This document shows, piece after piece, positions 2,779 through 12,997 of a stretch of 21,308 bases of DNA; the stretch's first letter is position 1; each line of letters opens with the position of its first letter. This DNA comes from a virus. Both the position numbers and the translations under genes were made by a program. The stretch is from the IMG/VR virus record IMGVR_UViG_3300006037_000046, positions 1-21,308 of that record; one strand, written 5' to 3'. Under the pieces are notes generated by a model. The model was not told the DNA's origin and searched no databases. It worked only from the letters and a program-made list of their open reading frames with translations.

Positions 2779-3036
2779 TTAATCTTTTGGTTTTTCACCA
2801 ATAACTTTTTTGCCTGAAGCATCAAAATAATATGGTTCGTATTCATTGATGCAGTTTTTATAAATCAAATAAATAGCTAAAGTAACAACAATAAGATTCC
2901 AAGGTGAAAGCCAATTAATATTAATGCTATTTCCCCACATAGTAAGAGCAGGCGCACCAAATAAAAACGCAATAATGCCAAGCGCCGGCACAATATCAAA
3001 ATAATAATATTTATCTTTGTATTTCCAGTTAATCAA
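2779..3036 (-). CDS. Small protein with two transmembrane helices, possible holin
   Basis: An 85-residue protein with two predicted membrane helices, about 13-34 (IVPALGIIAFLFGAPALTMW) and 44-60 (SPWNLIVVTLAIYLIYK), and a hydrophilic tail ending GEKPKD. Size and topology fit class II holins. The position next to the packaging genes recalls T7, where the holin gene lies between tail fibre and terminase genes. I see no holin family motif, so the role is inferred. The start is TTG (3036-3034), overlapping the TGA of the preceding gene, with GAGAGGG at 3044-3050 spaced 7 nt. The next in-frame ATG falls inside the first helix, which favours TTG. A membrane component of DNA ejection is an alternative. 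Confidence 0.55.
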   Translation of the reverse strand: MINWKYKDKYYYFDIVPALGIIAFLFGAPALTMWGNSININWLSPWNLIVVTLAIYLIYKNCINEYEPYYFDASGKKVIGEKPKD

Positions 3037-5567
3037 TCCACAACCCTCTCAAAATCAGGCGCCTGAATGTCACCCCAATCATCGCCTAGCCAACGCGTCC
3101 GACCGTGTTCATTTTCTGCTTTTTGTAGCAGCTTTTGACGGTAATCAGGTGCAATCATATCTTGAAATTCATCAAAAATTAAACGGTTTGTTGCAGCTTT
3201 TGTATACCACAAGTTTTGAGCAGGTATTTTTCCTTTCAAATATTTAAATGTTTCATTGCCTGCATTAGTGTCAATACCATTGGCTGCTTGAGTGGCGTTA
3301 CCTACTGTTAAATTTAATATGGTTTTGAAGTCCGAACCGAATGGCCCACCTAAAAAGTCGGTTGCATCACGACCACTGGTATCAGTACCAGCAACTAAAA
3401 TATCTCCCAAAACTGGCAAGCCACCACCTGCCACAAATGAGCGTTTGAAGAAATCTGAATCAATACCGGCTGTATACCATTTTTCACCATCCCACATTTC
3501 AGAAGGATCATTACCATTTACCAGCTCTTTTAACTGAACAACCAAACCGCCTAAAACTGTGGTCATAGCGATCAATGAAGCAGCATAAGTAGCTTTACCT
3601 TGTACTGTTTTCTGAGCCATTGCACGAGAACCATGACGCATTAAAAAGGCTGCCGAGAACGATTTAAATTGCAGCATGGATTTTACAATCTCACCCATAG
3701 CTGTTCCCTTTTTCATGCCAGGTGCCATGAATGTTCTTTCACGTAACCCAGCCTCAATTACAGCCATGCCTTGCTCATCTAACAAGTGGGCTTGAAAACT
3801 TGAAGCAACTTCATCTTTGACTTTTTGAGGGTCTCCAAACTTGGTTAATTGCTCATCTGGAATTTCATAGATAGATCGTGCTGACATCAACTGATTGCCC
3901 TTTCTATCAATCACAGGTTCAGCCAAGCGCATGACTTCCCACGCTCGTTCACTCAATCCTGTTTTTTCCATCATTTCACGGTCATTGGTATTCAATTCAG
4001 ACCATGCTTTATCACGGCTTAAACGTCCGTATTTCTCCATCAGCATTTTAGTAAAGCCAACTTTTGAAGCGGCTGTTAAAGCATTCAGTCCAGATACACG
4101 CATAACTTGAGATGCTATGCCACTCGACACACGTGCCAGTTTTTGCGACTTACCATGTACAGAAGTCAACCCATCATCAGCCCAACGATTGATAGAGCCG
4201 AGCATTTCCTCAGTGGCCAAACCTAAACTGTGTGCTAATTCCCGATCTTCTTTATTTTTTGGGTTTAACTGTGTGAGCAATTCACCGAATGTTTTACGAA
4301 AAGCAATATTGTGAATCGAAGCAGTTTTGGCAATCATAGCTTGATCTGTAATGCTTGATAGAGTTGTACCACCCAACATAGCTGCAACGTTCATAGAGCG
4401 ATACGCCAAGCCTAAATTGGCTAGCACTTCGGACTGTGGTGTATTCTGCCCTGTAAATTCATCAAACATCGTTTGTGCGCGTTTACGTGACTTTCCTGTG
4501 CTATTCGCATCTATACCTTTGAGCCAATCTTTATTTCCTGCTGCATCCATTAAAATACGCATGGCATTTTTAGGACTACTTCCAAGACTTTCTACAAGTG
4601 CAATATCTTTAGATAAGCCGTTTACGTGTGCTTCCACCAAGTCCACAAAAGGCATACCACCAAAATCAGATTGATAATCTAGCCAGGCATCAGCATCTTT
4701 AAAATGCAGCACACGACTTTCAGAATGACGGCTGGTTACTTTTGAATTGCCACCAAATGATTGACGACCTATTTCTGTTTTATTTGCGCCGTTACTTGTG
4801 AGCGTATCAAACGAGTATTCGAGTAAATCACGTATTTCTTGCTGTGAATAAAATGTACCATCTTCATGCACGTACTTTGATGTATCAATCAGATTCTCAG
4901 CTTTATCTACCCAAGCTTGTTTACCTGCTACTGCAATTTTTTCTAGGTTGTGCGTTTGCGGTAAACCCCAATCATCAAGCTTTCCAATATCACCGCCTGA
5001 TCGATTGAAGCGTTCACGCATCCCCTCAAATACATCGCCCATCTTGTCGGATATTTTTTTAGCCAAAGCATCGCCAGTATCTTGACCAAAGCGTTCACGT
5101 ACAATTTTTTGAACTAAATCCTTGTCAGTAAATACACCTAAGCCGCCTTTAATGTTGGTGTAGAAGTCAACCAAGTCACCACGGTAAATAGCTGCAATTG
5201 CACGTGCTTTTGAATCCAATGATTGAACTCCCGACATATCACCATGCGGTGCAACCATGCGGTCTACAACTTCACTGGCTGATAAAGTTGCATGGTCAAG
5301 CTGTGCCAAGTTTTTAGATTGAGTGAGAATGTCATGCGCTGCGATTTTATGCTTGCGTTTTAATTGCACTTGAATATCAATTGCAACCTGCTCACTGGCT
5401 TGTATCAGCTTTTCAGATTCAGATAAATTACGCCAAGCATCAAGGTCTTTTTTAGCCAAGGATTTCATCGCATCTTTAATGCGCTGTTCGATTTGCTTTG
5501 CTTCCTGTTGATTTAATGAAGCCTTGCCTAGTGCTTGCGCTACAGCTTGTTTGCATTGTTCTTTCAT
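3033..5567 (-). CDS. Large internal virion / DNA-ejection protein (844 aa)
   Basis: A large helical protein of a family often found beside polyvalent or transglycosylase ejection proteins in podoviruses and prophages; I recognise it by its C-terminus. Landmarks are a hydrophobic stretch at about 658-680 (YAASLIAMTTVLGGLVVQL), then NGNDP (684-688), GGGLPVLGDIL (714-724), DFLGGPFGSD (737-746) and NLWYTKAATNRLIFDE (785-800). The N-terminal 100 residues are a charged helix. No catalytic motif is visible. The ATG at 5567 follows the preceding stop by 3 nt, with GGAGAA just upstream, so the two are probably made together. The likely role is in the capsid core, being ejected to form or line the DNA conduit, like the C-terminal part of T7 gp16. 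Family recognition is moderate; the role is inferred. Confidence 0.65.
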   Translation of the reverse strand: MKEQCKQAVAQALGKASLNQQEAKQIEQRIKDAMKSLAKKDLDAWRNLSESEKLIQASEQVAIDIQVQLKRKHKIAAHDILTQSKNLAQLDHATLSASEVVDRMVAPHGDMSGVQSLDSKARAIAAIYRGDLVDFYTNIKGGLGVFTDKDLVQKIVRERFGQDTGDALAKKISDKMGDVFEGMRERFNRSGGDIGKLDDWGLPQTHNLEKIAVAGKQAWVDKAENLIDTSKYVHEDGTFYSQQEIRDLLEYSFDTLTSNGANKTEIGRQSFGGNSKVTSRHSESRVLHFKDADAWLDYQSDFGGMPFVDLVEAHVNGLSKDIALVESLGSSPKNAMRILMDAAGNKDWLKGIDANSTGKSRKRAQTMFDEFTGQNTPQSEVLANLGLAYRSMNVAAMLGGTTLSSITDQAMIAKTASIHNIAFRKTFGELLTQLNPKNKEDRELAHSLGLATEEMLGSINRWADDGLTSVHGKSQKLARVSSGIASQVMRVSGLNALTAASKVGFTKMLMEKYGRLSRDKAWSELNTNDREMMEKTGLSERAWEVMRLAEPVIDRKGNQLMSARSIYEIPDEQLTKFGDPQKVKDEVASSFQAHLLDEQGMAVIEAGLRERTFMAPGMKKGTAMGEIVKSMLQFKSFSAAFLMRHGSRAMAQKTVQGKATYAASLIAMTTVLGGLVVQLKELVNGNDPSEMWDGEKWYTAGIDSDFFKRSFVAGGGLPVLGDILVAGTDTSGRDATDFLGGPFGSDFKTILNLTVGNATQAANGIDTNAGNETFKYLKGKIPAQNLWYTKAATNRLIFDEFQDMIAPDYRQKLLQKAENEHGRTRWLGDDWGDIQAPDFERVVD

Positions 5568-5570
5568 TAA

Positions 5571-8500
5571 TTATTCTCCAAACTGTAAAGCACAGCTAAT
5601 TGCGGTTTGTGTGGCAAGTGTGTCTTGTTCCGCTTGTTTCGCTTCAGCTTCTAATTCATCCAAGCGTTCACGCAAAGTCATGGTAATTTCTTCTGCATTG
5701 CCATCAGGATCATAACGAGTCACACTGATATGCTGATCAGGATTTTGCATGATGGTATTCGCCACCGCATCTCCTTCCAAAACATCGTCAAACAACGAAG
5801 TCACGCGCACTTGCTCAGCCCCAAGCATGCTATCCATTACAGCAACAATGTCTTGTGATAACTCTGCTCTAGGCGTTTGCATGATTAATGATTGCAAAGT
5901 TTTATAGGCTTGTATCATCCAAGATTTAAACCGGTTAAACACATCTTTAAGCTCTGGCGTTGGTGCATTGCCAGAAGATAAATATTGCTCAAAAGTTTCG
6001 GCAAATTTCTCATGCAAGTTTAGTGACTGCTCAGGCGTTAAATCCTTAAATTTAGCACCAGATAACCCCGCCCAATCCATTACCACATCCATATCTTTGC
6101 TTAGGTTTTGCGGCAATGCCCCTTGCTCTTTAAGCTGCATGTGCATTTCTAAGAAATGATGCCCAAGCTCATGCACAAAGGTAGAGAAATCGGCATCTTT
6201 GTTTAGCGTAATTGTTGAGCCATCTTTAGCGGGGCTAAAAGTGATAGAGCCGCGCGTGCCGTCTTGATGCAAGGTTTTATCGGCAGACTCCCTGTACATT
6301 GTTTCCCATGTTTGGAATACCTTGTTTTTACCTTTATTCTCAACAAAACCAAACTTCTTATAAAACGCTTTTAGTTTTGAAACATTCCCGCCAAAATCAC
6401 CAGATGGCGTTAATGCAATATGCTTACTATTCGCATCGGCATAATCAATTAACTGCTGCATTAGGTTGCTACCTTTGCCTGTGCCGCGTTCGTTTTGCGA
6501 AACAACAATTTTGCTTAGGGTTATGATATCGCCGTTCTCATGCACTGATACTGCTACGCCTATTTCCTTGGCTTGCTTCTCAAAATCATCAAGACTTTGA
6601 ACGCCACTTTTGGACTGGTGATAAATATTCGGATTTTCAGCATCAACCTCTTGTCGCTCTAGGGTGCTTTGCTTGTAAGTAGAATTAGATTGATCTAAAT
6701 CTGCAATCCGCATCGGAAAGCGTGCAAAAAGCTCATCCGCCGTGATGCCCATTTTTTTAGCTGTAGAGTGATAAACACTTGCGGCAACTTTTGCAGCATC
6801 GTTGATATAATCAGCACCGTATTTGCTTGAGTTGCTGAGCATTTCAACAATTTGATCTTGTACCGATTTTACCTGTGTTAATTCTTCACCAAACAAGCTC
6901 CCCTGTCTTGGGTCGCCCATGCTGTCAATTTCATCAATCTTGCTTTGAATATGCTCGCCAATAGCTTTGACACTGCGTTTATTGGCATCAAATACGTTTA
7001 AGAAATCACGTGCGCCTACGCTCAAACCGTCATCAATTAACTGACCTTGATCTAAATAATCACGTACTGTTTGACCACTGGCTTTAATATCACTCAATTT
7101 TTGCGCTGCTTGTGCCAAGTCTGTTGCAATCGTATTGGCATGCCGACCACCCTGCTTGACCAGTCCGCCAAGTTGCGACAATTGCGGCGATGCACGTAGT
7201 AAAGCATTCAAAACATTCTTACTGTCATCGTCCAAATTCTCAGACAATCGAGCAACCAAATTACCGTCGCCATAAGTATTTTGCGCCAAAGCGGTTTCAA
7301 TGCGGCGTTTACCATCTTGAGACAATCGACCGTCAGGTGTTTGCATATTTGCACGTTCTGACTGCGGCAATTGGTCAATAAATCCACGTACAAAGCCCAT
7401 GCTTTGATCAAGATTGATTGAGCCATCATTATTCACATTGATAAGTGAGGCATCGGGTAAGCGGTCAACATCGGTTTTAGCACGCTCAGGTGCGCTGAAT
7501 TGCGCTACATCAGCTTCATTGGCTAACTTGGTGAATTGCACACGGTCAGTATCAGTTAAGCGTGTACGCACTAATACAGGCTGATCTATGCCTGAAATAT
7601 CCATGCCACGAGTTGCAGCATAGTCATTGACCATTTTTAAGTATGCATCCGCCTTGCCCTCTGCATAGGCTTTGCCAATCGCCAATGTGCGACCGTTGCC
7701 CGATTCAACCACACCATCCAAACCTATAATTGGCGCACCATCGGATAATTTAGGCGAATCTGCTAACCATTCAGGGCGTAGATCATTTGCCATACTTTCA
7801 ATCTGCTGGCGTGACGCTGCACGTGTACGGTCACGTGGCTGTAGCTCTGCTGGATAATTAGGATTCACCCCATAGAGCGCATCGTTGGACGTAATCAATT
7901 CAGACAGTGGACGTATTTCTGCTGCCACATCATAACTTGAGCCGTCCATGCCAACGGCTGTACTTGTTCCATTACCGCCATAACGCGAGCTTAAACTATT
8001 CCACTTAGTTTGCCATTTACCGATCGCTTGCCCCACCGTTAAGCCAGACATGCCGTTATTGTTCACAATGGCATTGGCATTCTCAGAATCGTATTTGCGC
8101 ACAACATCAATCAGTCGTGCATTAGGATCAGCCTTTAAAACTTTTGCTGCCACCCCTGGTCCAAGTAAGTGACCCAAATATTGTTCATGCGCTACTGGTT
8201 CACGTCCAAGACTTTTACGCATAGATGCATTGGCATTCTTAATATGTTTTAAGCCCTGTTTAATTTGCTCATCCACATTGGTTCGATCACCGCCGCCTTG
8301 ACCTTTCCAAGTTTTATTGAGAATTTGAAATAATCCATGCGCTGTTGATGTTGGATTTTTAGCTGTATGACTAAATGAACCGCCTGTTTCAATATGACTA
8401 ATCGTTAATGCAACACTTGGGTCTATACCCTCTTGCTGTGCTTTACGTGCAATTGTTTTTGCATTGGTCGGTAAAGCCATAGATTCATAATTTACAGGCT

Positions 8501-9545
8501 TTTGCTTTTCTTCACCTTTGACTTCATGAATCACATTCACTGGTCGTCCAGCTTTCAGGTTTTCTGTGGCATGGTTTAGGTTTTTAAGATGGTTATTTTG
8601 CTGCACTGGGGCGGCTGACTTTACAGGACTTGCAGCATCGTCAAATTCCATCCGATTGACTGCCAGCGCACTTTGCACCACCGTTGCTTTCTGATCTACA
8701 TCCTTATTTAATGTCTCAAGTTCTTGCTGAATTTGCTTATCCGCATAATGCGAATAGCCACGTGCTGCACCAAACAACAAGGCATTTAATGCAAGGTCAG
8801 TTCCAATACTTTGACCAGTGACTTGATACTCTTTGGCTTGTTTGTCGTAACCCCCTGATTGAAGTATTCCCCCGCTTGCCGCTTGCCCTGCGGTGGATAA
8901 AGCAGTTGCGCCACCAATCGATAAAGCGGCATCTTTTGCTACACCACCAACACCTTTTAAGCCGTATGAAATCGGCAATACCGTTGATACCGCAGCAACA
9001 CCACCATCCACCAAAGCCACCTTTGCAGCCGTGCCGCTATCCACGCCTTTATTGGTCAAGTCAGTGTATTTATAATTGGTTTCGGACGTGCCTGTTAATG
9101 CGGCCGATCCAACTACGCCACCGCCCAAACTACCAATTAACGCACGAGTTGCATAATCACCAACACCAAAGCCAATCTGACCTATAGTGCCTGTGTTCTG
9201 CTTATCCTCTAATTTCTCAACTGCGCCCAGAATAAGCTCATTTCGAGCATCATCCTTTCGATCTAAATACTCACCTGGACTTTCTTTTCGCACATCCAAT
9301 GGCTTAGAAAAATCATCTTCATCATTGATTGAATAAGTTAAGTGATCAATAACACGGTCAATCGGTGCTGCCAATGTATCCGCCGCTTTAGCAAAGCCTG
9401 CCGCTGCACCACGCAAAGGACTTGAAGCTGCACCATCAAACAAGCCAACTTCTTTTTTAACAGGCGGCATCTGTTTAAGCGGCTTCTTCTGCAATTCTTC
9501 AATTGCTAAGGTTTCATCATCGGCAAAGTCATTAAACCAAGTCAT
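5571..9545 (-). CDS. Polyvalent virion protein: transglycosylase + ddrB/ParB-like + GNAT-like + metallopeptidase
   Basis: A 1324-residue protein where T7-like phages place gp16. Residues 120-260 are Gly/Ala-rich and hydrophobic, perhaps membrane-active. Residues 360-495 are a lytic transglycosylase fold with catalytic glutamate E386 (HIETGGSF), then HGLFQI. Residues 556-700 match the ddrB-like ParB domain (YPAELQPRDRTRAAS; SDGAPIIG; VVESGNGRTLA). Residues 975-1085 look like a GNAT acetyltransferase, with NERGTGKGSNLM and FYKKFGF. Residues 1120-1190 are a zinc metallopeptidase, HELGH at 1125-1129, with E1183 (FAETFEQYL) a possible third ligand. A charged helix closes the protein. The ATG at 9545 overlaps the preceding TGA (ATGA); an upstream TTG is disfavoured. 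The virion probably delivers it, to open peptidoglycan and then act on host targets; this is inference. Confidence 0.85.
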   Translation of the reverse strand: MTWFNDFADDETLAIEELQKKPLKQMPPVKKEVGLFDGAASSPLRGAAAGFAKAADTLAAPIDRVIDHLTYSINDEDDFSKPLDVRKESPGEYLDRKDDARNELILGAVEKLEDKQNTGTIGQIGFGVGDYATRALIGSLGGGVVGSAALTGTSETNYKYTDLTNKGVDSGTAAKVALVDGGVAAVSTVLPISYGLKGVGGVAKDAALSIGGATALSTAGQAASGGILQSGGYDKQAKEYQVTGQSIGTDLALNALLFGAARGYSHYADKQIQQELETLNKDVDQKATVVQSALAVNRMEFDDAASPVKSAAPVQQNNHLKNLNHATENLKAGRPVNVIHEVKGEEKQKPVNYESMALPTNAKTIARKAQQEGIDPSVALTISHIETGGSFSHTAKNPTSTAHGLFQILNKTWKGQGGGDRTNVDEQIKQGLKHIKNANASMRKSLGREPVAHEQYLGHLLGPGVAAKVLKADPNARLIDVVRKYDSENANAIVNNNGMSGLTVGQAIGKWQTKWNSLSSRYGGNGTSTAVGMDGSSYDVAAEIRPLSELITSNDALYGVNPNYPAELQPRDRTRAASRQQIESMANDLRPEWLADSPKLSDGAPIIGLDGVVESGNGRTLAIGKAYAEGKADAYLKMVNDYAATRGMDISGIDQPVLVRTRLTDTDRVQFTKLANEADVAQFSAPERAKTDVDRLPDASLINVNNDGSINLDQSMGFVRGFIDQLPQSERANMQTPDGRLSQDGKRRIETALAQNTYGDGNLVARLSENLDDDSKNVLNALLRASPQLSQLGGLVKQGGRHANTIATDLAQAAQKLSDIKASGQTVRDYLDQGQLIDDGLSVGARDFLNVFDANKRSVKAIGEHIQSKIDEIDSMGDPRQGSLFGEELTQVKSVQDQIVEMLSNSSKYGADYINDAAKVAASVYHSTAKKMGITADELFARFPMRIADLDQSNSTYKQSTLERQEVDAENPNIYHQSKSGVQSLDDFEKQAKEIGVAVSVHENGDIITLSKIVVSQNERGTGKGSNLMQQLIDYADANSKHIALTPSGDFGGNVSKLKAFYKKFGFVENKGKNKVFQTWETMYRESADKTLHQDGTRGSITFSPAKDGSTITLNKDADFSTFVHELGHHFLEMHMQLKEQGALPQNLSKDMDVVMDWAGLSGAKFKDLTPEQSLNLHEKFAETFEQYLSSGNAPTPELKDVFNRFKSWMIQAYKTLQSLIMQTPRAELSQDIVAVMDSMLGAEQVRVTSLFDDVLEGDAVANTIMQNPDQHISVTRYDPDGNAEEITMTLRERLDELEAEAKQAEQDTLATQTAISCALQFGE

Positions 9546-11578
9546 TTCGTAACCCCATGCATTTTGACACGCCAAATAGCATTATCTTTGATGAGTTTCT
9601 GCCCCTGCTCATTGATTAAATCATATTGAATTTCGCCCTTATCTGACGGCTTGCCCTGAACCAATCGGAAACCTTGAAGGTCTGATACACTAATGCCTGT
9701 CTGCTCTGAAATTCTGGCATAACCATCTTCTAATCGATTCTCAAACTTTTCATCTGACATGCCATAAGGTTTCGTTACTTTCCAACTTGACGTTTTGACA
9801 CCACGATAATTACGATAATCATCAGGCTGGTTATAAACCCCACCTGTTGCCATTTCTAAAGCAGTTTTTAGAATGTTTTTATCAGGGTTAGCATCTTTTG
9901 TTGTGTGACTAAAACCACGCTCAGCCATCGTATCAGCATAAATTGCTTTAAATGTTTCATAGGCTGTATTCGCTTTTTCACCTTGTAAAGTATTCCCAGC
10001 ATAAACGGTGAATTTCTGCCGCATGATGTCCTCTTTCGGCATCATTAATTGCTTGTTTTTAAGCAGATCTGTTCCAGTTAAAATTGACTCCGCCACATCA
10101 CGACCATCAGAAGAAATAAAGCCTTTTGCCCTTGCCATTCCTGCCGCAATGTAGTTTTTATTGCCACCGCCAAGCTGCTCTAATGTCGCACCCCAAATTT
10201 TATTACCACCTGCAATACCTTTGCTTTGGTTGACCAATGCCGCAATAAAATCAAGTTTCTTATCAGCCGGCATTGCATCAAATGCTTTTTTAGCTTCAGG
10301 TAAATCTTCAGTAGAGATTGGCTTAATAGATAAATTTTCATCCTTCAAAGCCGCCTGTTTTGTGGCATTGCCGATGATCTTTTTTACAACACTTTGCGGA
10401 TTGGCTTTTAACTCTGCACCAGTGATTGAATTAACTTCTAAACCGACTTCACGTACCGCTTGATTCGGGTTTTCTTTAATTGTTTTGAGCTTTTCGTCAT
10501 AAATGGACTGATATACCCCGAATATTTTGTTTTCAGTCACAGGGTCATTTGATGTCGTGTTTTTAGAGTTTGCCTTTTGTGTGTTTAATCGCTTTAGCAT
10601 TTCAGGCGTGGATAAATTGCTAAACTTTTGAAAATTGCCCGAATGCTGTTTATAAAACTCATACTCGCTTTCGTACTCAGTACCTTTAACTGCTACACCA
10701 ACATCTGTCGAATAAGCATCATCGAGCGCACGACCTGTCAGCACTTGCGATTTATATTGATTAAATACCGTCCCTGCGCTCTGCACACGCTCATTTTCAA
10801 CCACTTGCGCACGATGATTCAAAGCTTCAATGCGGCTTGTAATTGTGGATTTAAACGAATGGATTGTCTGCCCATCAAGGCTGTTGAACTTACTATCAGG
10901 CTTATCTAATTCCGCATAAATCTTCTGCAAGCCTTGAATATCTGCCTTTTGAGTTGAAGTAAGAATGCTCTCATTTATAGTATTTATACTTTGGTTTTGC
11001 TTATACTCTTTTGCGTATTCCAGTGCTTCGCTAGGAGATAGATATTTTTTACTTGCCTGAATAGTCTCTCCAGCATACTGATCTGCCATATCCGAGTTTT
11101 TCATTTTGGCAAGATTATCTAATGTGAGTTTTGCACTTGTCCGCGCTGTATCCGCTTCGGTTTTTTGACCAATATCATAAAATGAACTGATCTGACGATT
11201 ACCAAAATCAGTAAACTTAGGCGCAAAGTCCTTTCTCACTGACTCAGGTATTTGTGACAAGGATTCATCCAAACGTTTTGCAAAATCCGTACTGAACTCA
11301 CGGTCAATTACAGTCGCATCTTCCCCCGATGCAACACGTTGACGGTATTCACCAGCCATGTTCTCAATATCAAGACTGAAACTGCTTGCGACCGTCGCCC
11401 CTTGCAGTCGATCTTTTTCATTTTGTTCTTGTTTGCGTTGCTGTGCAACCTGACCAGCCACTTGACCAATATTCTGCAAAGCTCCTGCAATCATCTGACC
11501 AGTTTGATTCTGTGGCATTTGGATACGTTCAACCTGTGGCATAGATTGACCGAAATTGCCCATAGGAATTTTAGCCAT
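9542..11578 (-). CDS. Internal virion protein, T7 gp15-like by position
   Basis: A 678-residue helical protein with no signal peptide or membrane helix. It begins MAKIPMGNFGQSMPQ, then has a Gln-rich segment (GQVAGQVAQQRKQEQNEKD) and long amphipathic helices. The C-terminal part contains YGMSDEKFENRLEDGYARI, a form common in ejection proteins placed between a gp14-like and a gp16-like gene. The order gp14-like, this gene, transglycosylase protein matches the T7 ejectosome order 14-15-16, and the length is close to gp15 (about 750). The ATG at 11578 overlaps the previous stop as TAATG, with a G-rich ribosome site just upstream; a GTG at 11587 would also fit but is less likely. The inferred role is a periplasmic conduit subunit for DNA ejection. 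The residue-level match to gp15 is not obvious to me. Confidence 0.68.
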   Translation of the reverse strand: MAKIPMGNFGQSMPQVERIQMPQNQTGQMIAGALQNIGQVAGQVAQQRKQEQNEKDRLQGATVASSFSLDIENMAGEYRQRVASGEDATVIDREFSTDFAKRLDESLSQIPESVRKDFAPKFTDFGNRQISSFYDIGQKTEADTARTSAKLTLDNLAKMKNSDMADQYAGETIQASKKYLSPSEALEYAKEYKQNQSINTINESILTSTQKADIQGLQKIYAELDKPDSKFNSLDGQTIHSFKSTITSRIEALNHRAQVVENERVQSAGTVFNQYKSQVLTGRALDDAYSTDVGVAVKGTEYESEYEFYKQHSGNFQKFSNLSTPEMLKRLNTQKANSKNTTSNDPVTENKIFGVYQSIYDEKLKTIKENPNQAVREVGLEVNSITGAELKANPQSVVKKIIGNATKQAALKDENLSIKPISTEDLPEAKKAFDAMPADKKLDFIAALVNQSKGIAGGNKIWGATLEQLGGGNKNYIAAGMARAKGFISSDGRDVAESILTGTDLLKNKQLMMPKEDIMRQKFTVYAGNTLQGEKANTAYETFKAIYADTMAERGFSHTTKDANPDKNILKTALEMATGGVYNQPDDYRNYRGVKTSSWKVTKPYGMSDEKFENRLEDGYARISEQTGISVSDLQGFRLVQGKPSDKGEIQYDLINEQGQKLIKDNAIWRVKMHGVTK

Positions 11579-12039
11579 TATTTCCACCCCCCACCAGTTG
11601 AGCCTTTATTATTCTGAGAGAGTGAGCTATAACCACTTGCACCAGCAGATACGGTATTTAAGGCACCAGTTGCAGCAGCAGTACCAGCATTGTTTTTATG
11701 CACGCTCGCTTCCGCTTTTAAGCGTTGAGAAGAATTATATCCAGTGACCTCTGCCATTGCCGCATCATAGTTGCCTGCTTGCTCAATTGAATCATTGATG
11801 ACAATGGACGTACCCTCATTTACATCAAGCCCATTACCAGCCGCAGCCGCACGTGCGGCGGATTGTGCTTTCCCTTTTTCCTTTCGGATGCGTTCCGCCT
11901 CAAGACGACCACGCGCTTTTACAGCATCAGCATCTGCTTCCGCTTGTTCGCCAGCAGCTTTATTATTCTGATAGCTTGAATATCCAGTGATTGCCGCACT
12001 CACAACCGTTGCGGCAACTGCAACATAAGCCATGCTCAT
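11578..12039 (-). CDS. Virion core / DNA-ejection protein, gp14-like
   Basis: A 153-residue Ala-rich protein. Residues 3-20 (MAYVAVAATVVSAAITGY) form a hydrophobic helix, followed by a long charged helix (about 28-65) and the signature GKAQSAARAAAAGNGLDVNEG (57-77, cited in part), which recurs in gp14-like virion core proteins. The C-terminus is Gly/Ser/Ala-rich and ends GSTGGGWK. In T7, gp14 enters the outer membrane during ejection, and the N-terminal helix here fits such a role. The ATG at 12039 overlaps the preceding TGA (ATGA); a second ATG two codons later could also serve. Position directly before two larger ejection proteins supports the call. Confidence 0.75.
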   Translation of the reverse strand: MSMAYVAVAATVVSAAITGYSSYQNNKAAGEQAEADADAVKARGRLEAERIRKEKGKAQSAARAAAAGNGLDVNEGTSIVINDSIEQAGNYDAAMAEVTGYNSSQRLKAEASVHKNNAGTAAATGALNTVSAGASGYSSLSQNNKGSTGGGWK

Positions 12040-12545
12040 GCAATAAACTCCTTATCTTGATATCCAATACTCGCTAGGAAATTATCAATTTCACTTTCAG
12101 GAATAGTTAGATCATCTTCTAGCTTTTCAGTATTGGTTTCATTTAACGTATTTGGATGGATGGTTAGCCAAGAGCTATCTTCATGAAAATATCCAATTCG
12201 CTTAGTCCCTGCTTTAGACAGCATGACTTGACCAGCATATACATCCTTAATGCCATCTTCGGTAATCAGTGAAACTGCACCTTTAAGTAAGATATTAAAA
12301 TGCTCGGTACTGTGCATTTTGCTAATAACCAACGTTCTAGCTTTAGCATCCATCTGACGCATGTAAACATCAGGGCCAAAGTGGTGCTTTACAGGTGGAA
12401 TTACTTCATCAATCTGATTTTCTTTAATCCCTGCTACAAAGTAATTTTGAATCTTTTTAACCACTTCGATATACGTTCTACGCTCAGGATTGTCTAAAAT
12501 TTGCTTTAATAAATCAGTGTTATCTTGCTGAATAATATCGCTCAC
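12036..12545 (-). CDS. Cupin-like phage protein between tail and ejection genes
   Basis: A 169-residue protein whose middle (about 53-130) reads as one cupin beta-roll: HHFGPDVYMRQM, then VISKMHSTEHFNILLKG (74-89), EDGIKDVYAG, AGTKRIGYF and SSWLTIHP. H78 and H82 lie in the first cupin motif, and H121 and H130 are further candidate ligands. I recall similar small proteins next to acetyltransferase genes in podoviral tail modules, with no known function. The N-terminal 50 residues and acidic C-terminal 40 are helical and unrecognised. The start is GTG (12545-12543), overlapping the TGA of the acetyltransferase gene as GTGA. A structural or assembly role is as likely as an enzymatic one. Confidence 0.6.
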   Translation of the reverse strand: MSDIIQQDNTDLLKQILDNPERRTYIEVVKKIQNYFVAGIKENQIDEVIPPVKHHFGPDVYMRQMDAKARTLVISKMHSTEHFNILLKGAVSLITEDGIKDVYAGQVMLSKAGTKRIGYFHEDSSWLTIHPNTLNETNTEKLEDDLTIPESEIDNFLASIGYQDKEFIA

Positions 12546-12997
12546 GCTTTTAACTCCAAATCCAAAACAGTGCCGTATTGCTTAAACCCAAAACTTTCAT
12601 ACAGTCGAACGCATGATTGAGATTCAACACCAGTCGTTGTACCGCATTGGATACGACTTGCCCCCATAGCAGCCGCCCAACCAATGAACGCCTGAATAAG
12701 CATCTGTGCTGCACGTGATTTACGATACTCAGGAACGACATACAACACATCATCAAAAGCAATCTTGATGTCATTGAACCAATCACCACCGATACGGCCA
12801 ACAAAACCGCCAATGATCTGCTCATTTAGTTCAACTAGAAAGATCACCCCGCCGCCTTTGATCAAGTAAGTGAAATGCTTGGCTGCATTTTCCGCAAGAT
12901 ATGGACGGTTTTGATAATTAGGGGCTTCTTTTATAAACTCACTCCCCAATTCAACCATGACAGAAACATCGGAAAGTGTTGCTGCACGTATTTTCAT
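12542..12997 (-). CDS. GNAT-family N-acetyltransferase
   Basis: A complete 151-residue GNAT domain. MKIRAATLSDVSVMVELGSEF (1-21, cited in part) is the usual first strand and helix. Motif A runs DVLYVVPEYRKSRAAQMLI (83-101), where RKSRAA occupies the acetyl-CoA pyrophosphate loop, though it lacks the canonical glycines. Motif B is LYESFGFKQYG (132-142). The substrate is unknown. Stand-alone GNAT genes occur among podoviral tail genes, and their purpose there is unsettled. The start lies 2 nt after the tail tubular protein B stop, and the end overlaps the cupin-like gene, so all three are probably translated together. The missing glycines in the pyrophosphate loop could mean altered cofactor binding. 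Confidence 0.85.
   Translation of the reverse strand: MKIRAATLSDVSVMVELGSEFIKEAPNYQNRPYLAENAAKHFTYLIKGGGVIFLVELNEQIIGGFVGRIGGDWFNDIKIAFDDVLYVVPEYRKSRAAQMLIQAFIGWAAAMGASRIQCGTTTGVESQSCVRLYESFGFKQYGTVLDLELKA

What the first reader, a model, noticed from the sequence alone, without database searches (positions are those of the whole stretch)
5571..9545. Polyvalent ejection protein with four different enzymatic or binding domains
One 1324-aa chain appears to hold a lytic transglycosylase (E386), a ddrB/ParB-like domain, a GNAT-like acyltransferase and a HELGH metallopeptidase. It sits between a gp15-like gene and an 844-aa ejection-type protein, so it is probably packaged and injected. Polyvalent proteins are known from phages and conjugative elements as multi-effector proteins. 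What is notable is the joining of a cell-wall hydrolase for entry with domains that could act on host or foreign targets inside the cell.
Basis: partly seen in the sequence, partly recalled or inferred. Interest (0 to 1): 0.72.

Follow-up and report, generated by a model that had tools for sequence, protein, structure and literature searches.

The report
Phage ejection protein with effector cartridge
A virus of Acinetobacter-type bacteria carries one long protein, probably shot into the cell with its DNA, that joins a cell-wall cutter and a DNA-binding-type domain to a small enzyme cartridge that most of its relatives lack and that other phages seem to swap freely.

Summary
Window 5571-9545, minus strand, is one intact 1324-codon gene. 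Its order is: an epsilon15 gp16-like N-terminus; a phiKZ gp144-type lytic transglycosylase (E386); a DdrB-ParB domain with its helical companion; a ~55-aa linker; a GNAT; an HELGH metallopeptidase-type domain (E1126); and a 60-aa tail. It lies between the epsilon15 gp15- and gp17-like genes, so packaging and injection are well supported by orthology, though not shown.

Transglycosylase plus DdrB-ParB in Acinetobacter prophages was already reported (PMC5512222). New here is the linker-GNAT-metallopeptidase block. Of 89 full-length orthologs (28 clusters at 90% identity), only this phage's cluster has it; 16 orthologs in 149 genomes of one Acinetobacter genus sample all lack it. The same block occurs inside unrelated 2000-2800-residue polyvalent proteins. 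In close relatives there, flanks are 92-96% and peptidases 97-99% identical while the stretch between linker and peptidase is swapped.

I read it as an injected ejection protein that has taken up, or kept, an exchangeable effector cartridge with a processing peptidase. Targets, processing and direction (gain or loss) are unproved. The GNAT's best structural match is AcrVA5, a Cas12a-acetylating anti-CRISPR, without sequence support. New variant of a known kind.

The parts
5571..9545 (-). Whole gene, 1324 aa, ejection/polyvalent protein
   Evidence: Open frame, ATGA overlap with the upstream gene; identical protein on two other contigs
8511..9473 (-). N-terminal helical part, residues 25-345, epsilon15 gp16-like
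   Evidence: phmmer to epsilon15 gp16, E 5e-13 (28-262 and 268-344); core profile E 3e-23; phrog_1145, 25-354
7971..8477 (-). Lytic transglycosylase, residues 357-525, E386
   Evidence: phiKZ gp144 by sequence and structure, Z 17.6; Foldseek E 7.6e-5
7560..7946 (-). DdrB-like ParB domain, residues 534-662
   Evidence: PF18763 E 1e-38; ESGNGR motif and R660/R662/R668 invariant or nearly so in 27 rows
6885..7559 (-). Helical DdrB companion region, residues 663-887
   Evidence: Shared with P1 DdrB and phrog_5143/2299
6699..6866 (-). Linker, residues ~894-949
   Evidence: Shared with BPP-1 Bbp10, L218 and 2000-2800-residue polyvalent proteins
6276..6665 (-). GNAT, residues ~961-1090, RxxGxG at 1020-1025
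   Evidence: PF13508 E 8e-7; fold
5808..6299 (-). Zincin-type metallopeptidase domain, residues ~1083-1246
   Evidence: HELGH plus H1178/E1179/E1186 invariant in 38 of 38; phrog_9880 E 3e-70 over GNAT and peptidase
6159..6173 (-). HELGH motif, residues 1125-1129
5574..5756 (-). Conserved C-terminal tail, residues ~1264-1324
   Evidence: At the C-terminus in all 92 ortholog frames that matched the tail profile, and in Acinetobacter phage 4316
9542..11587 (-). 681-aa gp15-like ejection protein
   Evidence: epsilon15 gp15 E 4.5e-9; phrog_992
3033..5567 (-). 844-aa gp17-like ejection protein
   Evidence: epsilon15 gp17 E 4e-67; phrog_684
11578..12039 (-). 153-aa gp14-like internal virion protein
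   Evidence: epsilon15 gp14 E 8e-7; phrog_418

Best explanation
This is the epsilon15 gp16-type ejection protein of a podovirus-like phage or prophage of Acinetobacter-type hosts, enlarged by an effector cartridge. Inferred order of action: (1) it is packed in the head with the gp14-, gp15- and gp17-like core proteins; (2) on ejection the N-terminal helical part helps build the envelope channel and the transglycosylase opens the peptidoglycan; (3) the DdrB-ParB part enters the cytoplasm with the DNA and acts there on or beside DNA; (4) the metallopeptidase-type domain cuts the chain, most likely itself, so that the GNAT and DdrB parts are freed from the envelope-bound part; (5) the GNAT acetylates a host protein early in infection. 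Shown by computation: the domains, the orthology, the cartridge's absence from relatives, its presence in other polyvalent proteins, and exchange of what lies between linker and peptidase in those proteins. Inferred: packaging, injection, processing, target.
For: Gene-by-gene match to epsilon15 gp14, gp15, gp16 and gp17, in the order of the annotated record. Domains. Peptidase signature invariant in 38 of 38 rows, GNAT motif R in 35 and both G in 36 of 36. Among full-length orthologs 1 cluster of 28 has the block (alignments). In 149 genomes of the genus of Acinetobacter sp. ANC 3781, 16 ortholog places in 15 genomes, all in frames of 937-991 aa, none with the block. The block occurs contiguously in other polyvalent proteins, including 3 of the same 149 genomes as 2283-2291-aa frames. 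Slot exchange between 92-96% identical upstream flanks and 97-99% identical peptidases, with ART, PBECR1, PBECR3, LPD3 or GNAT in the slot. P1 DdrB, a relative of the DdrB part, is detected in P1 heads by mass spectrometry (PMC9024508, table passage).
Against: No virion data for this phage. The metallopeptidase is matched by no Pfam or PDB zincin at a convincing score, and its fold search was filled by GNATs. Processing is not general: PMC5512222 notes that the N4 RNA polymerase and some plasmid proteins travel uncut. Direction is open: L218 has the order transglycosylase, DdrB, linker, peptidase without GNAT, the window's peptidase is its sister (99/88), and a tree with the window outside all other orthologs is not rejected (p-AU 0.067).
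Confidence: 0.62

Rival explanations
1. The block is ancestral: the forebear of the family had DdrB-linker-effector-peptidase, as in L218, and the ~950-aa orthologs lost it. The window is then a relic, not a new acquisition.
For: L218 order and sister peptidase, 99/88; DdrB identity to L218 of 41.5% against 51-53% for the peptidase is what common descent of the whole block could give; base of the DdrB tree unresolved.
Against: In the core tree the window groups with four orthologs that lack the block (89/93); under that placement several losses are needed. The tree with the window outside all others is 4.2 log units worse.
Confidence: 0.3
2. The metallopeptidase-type domain attacks a host protein and does not process its own chain.
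For: PMC5512222 names this as an alternative (section 8); the domain also occurs behind slots of only 5-42 aa, where there is little to release.
Against: It directly follows the exchangeable effector in many proteins, with gaps of 0-15 residues, as expected of a processing unit; the same paper's reasoning on P1 DdrB.
Confidence: 0.3
3. A purely structural role: the enzyme domains are inactive passengers and the protein only builds the DNA channel.
For: Only the N-terminal part is shared with epsilon15 gp16; three orthologs do not align Glu at the E386 column.
Against: Catalytic residues are conserved in all enzyme parts; three orthologs with a diverged transglycosylase region still match an SLT model.
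Confidence: 0.07

Closest known systems
Acinetobacter prophage polyvalent protein with DdrB-ParB and lysozyme (WP_005204948, PMC5512222)
   Same: Same two domains, same kind of host, late-gene context, same injection argument (passage)
   Different: The passage mentions no GNAT or metallopeptidase in that protein; I did not see that record itself
Epsilon15 gp16 ejection protein
   Same: Orthologous N-terminus and gene position
   Different: 634 aa; the match ends at query residue 344, before the enzyme domains; the epsilon15 transglycosylase is annotated on gp15 instead
Phage P1 DdrB
   Same: DdrB-ParB plus helical region, 35% over 527-910; head protein (PMC9024508); annotated possible metallopeptidase
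   Different: No transglycosylase match; no match to the linker in my test
Bordetella phage BPP-1 Bbp10 and the Acinetobacter-type proteins L191-L221
   Same: Linker, exchangeable slot and metallopeptidase in the same order
   Different: About 2000-2800 residues, no transglycosylase-DdrB core except L218; BPP-1 has PBECR1 in the slot
Phage phiKZ gp144 lytic transglycosylase
   Same: Fold and sequence of residues 357-525
   Different: A separate protein, not fused to DdrB, GNAT or peptidase
AcrVA5 anti-CRISPR acetyltransferase
   Same: Top structural match of the GNAT, Z 10.8 over 93 of 95 residues
   Different: No sequence match; a free-standing small protein; fold shared by many GNATs

Membership tests
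Polyvalent proteins (Iyer 2017) | Two or more domains of disparate activity in one chain | tested here: met
   Transglycosylase, DdrB-ParB, GNAT; peptidase motif
Polyvalent proteins (Iyer 2017) | Encoded among late/virion genes | tested here: met
   Between gp15- and gp17-like genes, with portal, nozzle and internal virion proteins nearby
Polyvalent proteins (Iyer 2017) | Delivered into the host with the DNA | not testable with these tools
   Inferred from orthology only
Epsilon15 gp16-type ejection protein | Sequence similarity and synteny | tested here: met
   E 5e-13 single sequence, 3e-23 profile; same order gp14-17
SLT-type lytic transglycosylase | Fold and catalytic Glu | tested here: met
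   3bkh Z 17.6; E386 in 24 of 27 rows
DdrB-like ParB (PF18763) | Profile match and conserved arginine | tested here: met
   132.6 bits against cut-off 27.6; R619, R660, R662, R668 in 27 of 27
GNAT acetyltransferase | Fold and RxxGxG acetyl-CoA motif | tested here: met
   PF13508 29.8 bits against 27; Z up to 10.8; both G in 36 of 36 rows, R in 35
Zincin-type metallopeptidase | HExxH plus distal Glu on a second helix | tested here: met
   38 of 38 rows; HELGH and HEKFAETFE both fall on predicted helices
Zincin-type metallopeptidase | Zincin fold | tested here: inconclusive
   The listed structural matches were filled by GNATs; no convincing profile match
AcrVA5-type anti-CRISPR | Fold | tested here: met
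   6iuf_B top of the VIA list, Z 10.8 against 9.2 for the next GNAT
AcrVA5-type anti-CRISPR | Sequence similarity | tested here: not met
   Not among PDB hits up to E 0.1 or E 10
AcrVA5-type anti-CRISPR | Cas12a acetylation | not testable with these tools
   Needs the enzyme assay

The most novel reading that the evidence does not exclude
Linker-slot-metallopeptidase is a general, exchangeable effector cartridge of virion proteins: the linker and the peptidase stay, the effector between them turns over like the toxin tip of a polymorphic toxin, and the peptidase frees it after injection. In this phage the cartridge sits in an ejection protein, so a channel builder doubles as a delivery vehicle, and its GNAT is an AcrVA5-like acetyltransferase that disarms a CRISPR or other defence protein before any phage gene is expressed.
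Probability: 0.12. Interest if true: 0.78.

Novelty: new variant of a known kind. Interest (0 to 1): 0.46.

Why it matters
It gives a natural with/without comparison: ~950-aa ejection proteins that lack the cartridge next to one that has it, at one defined position in front of a conserved tail. In related Acinetobacter-type prophage proteins the slot is swapped between nearly identical flanks, which suggests that phages change the effector they deliver on entry as a unit. That makes two open questions directly testable: whether embedded metallopeptidases release the domains of polyvalent proteins, and whether virion-borne acetyltransferases act on host defence. One published structure-guided anti-CRISPR screen left out large proteins (PMC10799925, passage), so domains like this GNAT would not have been seen there.

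Tried and rejected
Rejected: that the long frame is an artefact (identical in two other contigs); that the GNAT is a copy of the phage's solo GNAT gene at 12542-12997 (no significant similarity, E 6.3); that AcrVA5 kinship is shown (fold only). No PADLOC defence-protein match at E 0.01 for the three proteins tried.

Led nowhere: rooting the cartridge's origin. The DdrB tree with outgroups is open at the base and has long branches. Pfam and PDB profile searches for the metallopeptidase gave nothing convincing. No zincin appears in the listed structural rows for the cartridge model, because GNATs fill the list. The DdrB-ParB part is barely tested by structure: the listed rows span 349-527. The core model is of modest confidence (pLDDT 69.9, pTM 0.39).

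From the ortholog count I left out frames open at the 3' end of the contig (L034, L049, L057, L088), the split L087, repeats L011/L012, and frames of 850 codons or less; repeats of one contig under other locus ids remain in the 89 but fall together among 79 distinct and 28 clusters. L007, L111, L175 and L272 were dropped from the tree for long branches. In one search weak GNAT-only and peptidase-only rows (domain E above 1e-12) were dropped; A5 then used 55 of the 74 dereplicated rows. The gain-or-loss clade tested was named after earlier trees had been seen.

Papers: PMC5512222 abstract, passages and sections 8, 11, 25, 32, 33, 34; PMC8954989, PMC12391199, PMC9024508, PMC10799925 and PMC9503650 passages only; PubMed 24286036 not held, known only from a record note. 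Others were seen in search listings only. That T7-type wall cross-linking affects the need for the transglycosylase is from a passage of PMC8954989.
Full report
OBSERVATION. Window 5571-9545 on the minus strand is one open frame of 1324 codons, starting at an ATG that overlaps the upstream stop. The opposite strand is full of stops. Two other IMG/VR contigs encode the identical protein. The window itself is a 21,308-base virus record.

DOMAINS. Pfam gives ddrB-ParB at 534-662 (E 1e-38) and a GNAT at 990-1069 (E 8e-7). The transglycosylase is missed by Pfam in this protein but matches phiKZ gp144 in the PDB at E 3e-5, or 3e-7 with a profile of 27 rows. AlphaFold models were made for residues 1-889 (pLDDT 69.9; blocks 361-440 at 84-92) and 880-1324 (pLDDT 78.6). 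The first gives phiKZ gp144 (3bkh) as best match, Foldseek E 7.6e-5, VIA Z 17.6 over 156 residues at rmsd 2.3; the next is 12.3. The second gives GNATs: Foldseek's best E is 6e-3, and the VIA list is led by the anti-CRISPR AcrVA5, Z 10.8 over 93 of 95 residues, followed by other GNATs at 9.2 and below. In BFVD, 27 matches have E of 0.001 or less; the top ones are large phage proteins.

ACTIVE SITES. In the ortholog alignment E386 is Glu in 24 of 27 rows; L082, L084 and L099, whose transglycosylase region is diverged, still match an SLT model. D572, R573, T574, E614, S615, G616, N617, R619, R660, R662 and R668 of the DdrB-ParB part are invariant in 27 of 27. In the cartridge alignment the GNAT motif's two glycines are present in 36 of 36 rows with letters there and its arginine in 35. 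H1125, E1126, H1129, H1178, E1179 and E1186 are present in 38 of 38. HELGH lies on predicted helix 1120-1140 and HEKFAETFE on helix 1171-1191 (numbering shifted by 879). That fits the zincin core as described in PMC5512222 (section 8). No zincin profile or solved structure was matched convincingly, so I call it metallopeptidase-type.

ORTHOLOGY. Compared with ten epsilon15 proteins, the 153-, 681-, 1324- and 844-aa proteins match gp14 (8e-7), gp15 (4.5e-9), gp16 (5e-13; 3e-23 with the profile) and gp17 (4e-67), in the order of the annotated record. The portal, tail tubular and nozzle-type proteins match gp4, gp11 and gp12. Epsilon15 gp16 covers only residues 28-344 of the query. Epsilon15's transglycosylase is annotated on gp15; here it is on the gp16 homologue. 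The review PMC8954989 (passages) describes such swaps of activities among ejection proteins.

THE CARTRIDGE. Orthologs align over residues 1-887 and again over about 1247-1324; residues ~890-1260 are missing from them. Of 89 full-length ortholog frames (79 distinct, 28 clusters at 90% identity), only this phage's own cluster has the stretch: a 1336-codon frame against 870-984. In 149 genomes drawn from the genus of Acinetobacter sp. ANC 3781, 16 ortholog places in 15 genomes have frames of 937-991 aa and none has it. The 60-residue tail stands at the C-terminus in all 92 ortholog frames that matched the tail profile. Apart from further copies of this phage, the only other protein with it was that of Acinetobacter phage 4316, which carries a lysozyme-type protein without DdrB.

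WHERE ELSE IT OCCURS. The cartridge is linker (894-949), GNAT (~961-1090), peptidase (~1083-1246). Among the loci examined, linker-GNAT-peptidase occurs in 44 frames other than this phage's ten repeats, plus 5 with a second peptidase match, and linker-peptidase without this GNAT in 40. These counts include repeats of one contig and come from capped samples; in some of the 44 the GNAT and the peptidase are separated by more than 100 residues. The complete frames are mostly of about 2000-2800 codons; BPP-1 Bbp10 has PBECR1 at the GNAT's place. In 3 of 149 genomes the full cartridge lies in 2283-2291-aa frames at 45-47% identity, and in 2 more only the peptidase matches.

THE SLOT. In four close relatives (L204, L212, L210, L208) the 250 residues before the linker are 92-96% identical, the linker 93-95% and the peptidase 97-99%. 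Between L204, L210 and L208 the slot is 22-34% over short alignments, that is, unrelated. L212 shares L204's GNAT (97%) with 238 further residues after it. Pfam on ten slots found ART-PolyVal in two, GNAT in three, PBECR3, PBECR1 and LPD3 in one each, and nothing in two. Eight proteins have 5-42 residues there. So the slot is exchanged as a unit in those proteins. That it works the same way in the ejection protein is inference.

GAIN OR LOSS. L218 encodes a 1662-aa protein with SLT 21-112, DdrB-ParB 550-679, linker 913-965 and peptidase 971-1117, without GNAT. The window's peptidase is its sister (99/88) inside a clade with Acinetobacter phage Ab9 and L200-type proteins (100/100; bootstrap not settled). 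L218's DdrB part is about equally far from the window (41.5%) and the other orthologs (42-44%). In the core tree the window groups with four orthologs lacking the cartridge (89/93). A tree with the window outside all others is 4.2 log units worse, p-AU 0.067. Gain by recombination with an L218-like protein is favoured, loss elsewhere not excluded.

PRIOR WORK. PMC5512222 defines polyvalent proteins, proposes that MPTases release their domains, notes two GNAT families of RimI kind, and reports DdrB-ParB fused to lysozyme in Acinetobacter prophage proteins (sections 8, 11, 25, 32, 33, 34 and passages). My searches for polyvalent/ejection/DdrB, Acinetobacter/prophage/polyvalent, and polyvalent/effector/metallopeptidase/variable listed no paper that, by title or the passages I read, describes a linker-slot-peptidase cartridge; the library holds open-licence papers only. 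PMC10799925 (passages) found a Cas12a inhibitor by AcrVA5-like fold without sequence similarity, after leaving out large proteins.

MECHANISM. Packaging, injection, peptidoglycan opening, self-processing and host acetylation are the inferred steps. The first three rest on orthology and fold, the last two on domain order, active sites and precedent. Verdict: a real and well-conserved multi-domain ejection protein, a new variant of a known kind, with a cartridge whose exchange makes clear experiments possible.

Noticed in passing
window 12542-12997, minus strand: A second, solo GNAT gene (151 aa, phrog_1249) at the place where epsilon15 gp13 is also annotated as GNAT-like; not similar to the fused GNAT.
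   Followed up: partly
L204, L208, L210, L212: Nearly identical polyvalent proteins with exchanged effectors between linker and metallopeptidase; a clear case of a polymorphic slot.
   Followed up: partly
L153, frame from 2295: One frame of 2672 codons with three GNAT matches in a row.
   Followed up: no
L007:2946-5558 and L090: 870-aa orthologs in which the region after about residue 690 is replaced or lost; in L007 the DdrB motif GNGR reads GSVR.
   Followed up: no
L087:5890-8375: Ortholog split into two frames of 253 and 599 codons, so broken or misassembled in that contig.
   Followed up: no
L084, L082, L099 around residues 390-490: Orthologs whose transglycosylase region is diverged from the rest but still matches the SLT model, even better than the window does, as if this domain too is exchanged.
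   Followed up: partly
window 12036-12545, minus strand: 169-aa protein matching PHROG 'tail fiber adhesin' placed inside the ejection-protein cluster.
   Followed up: no
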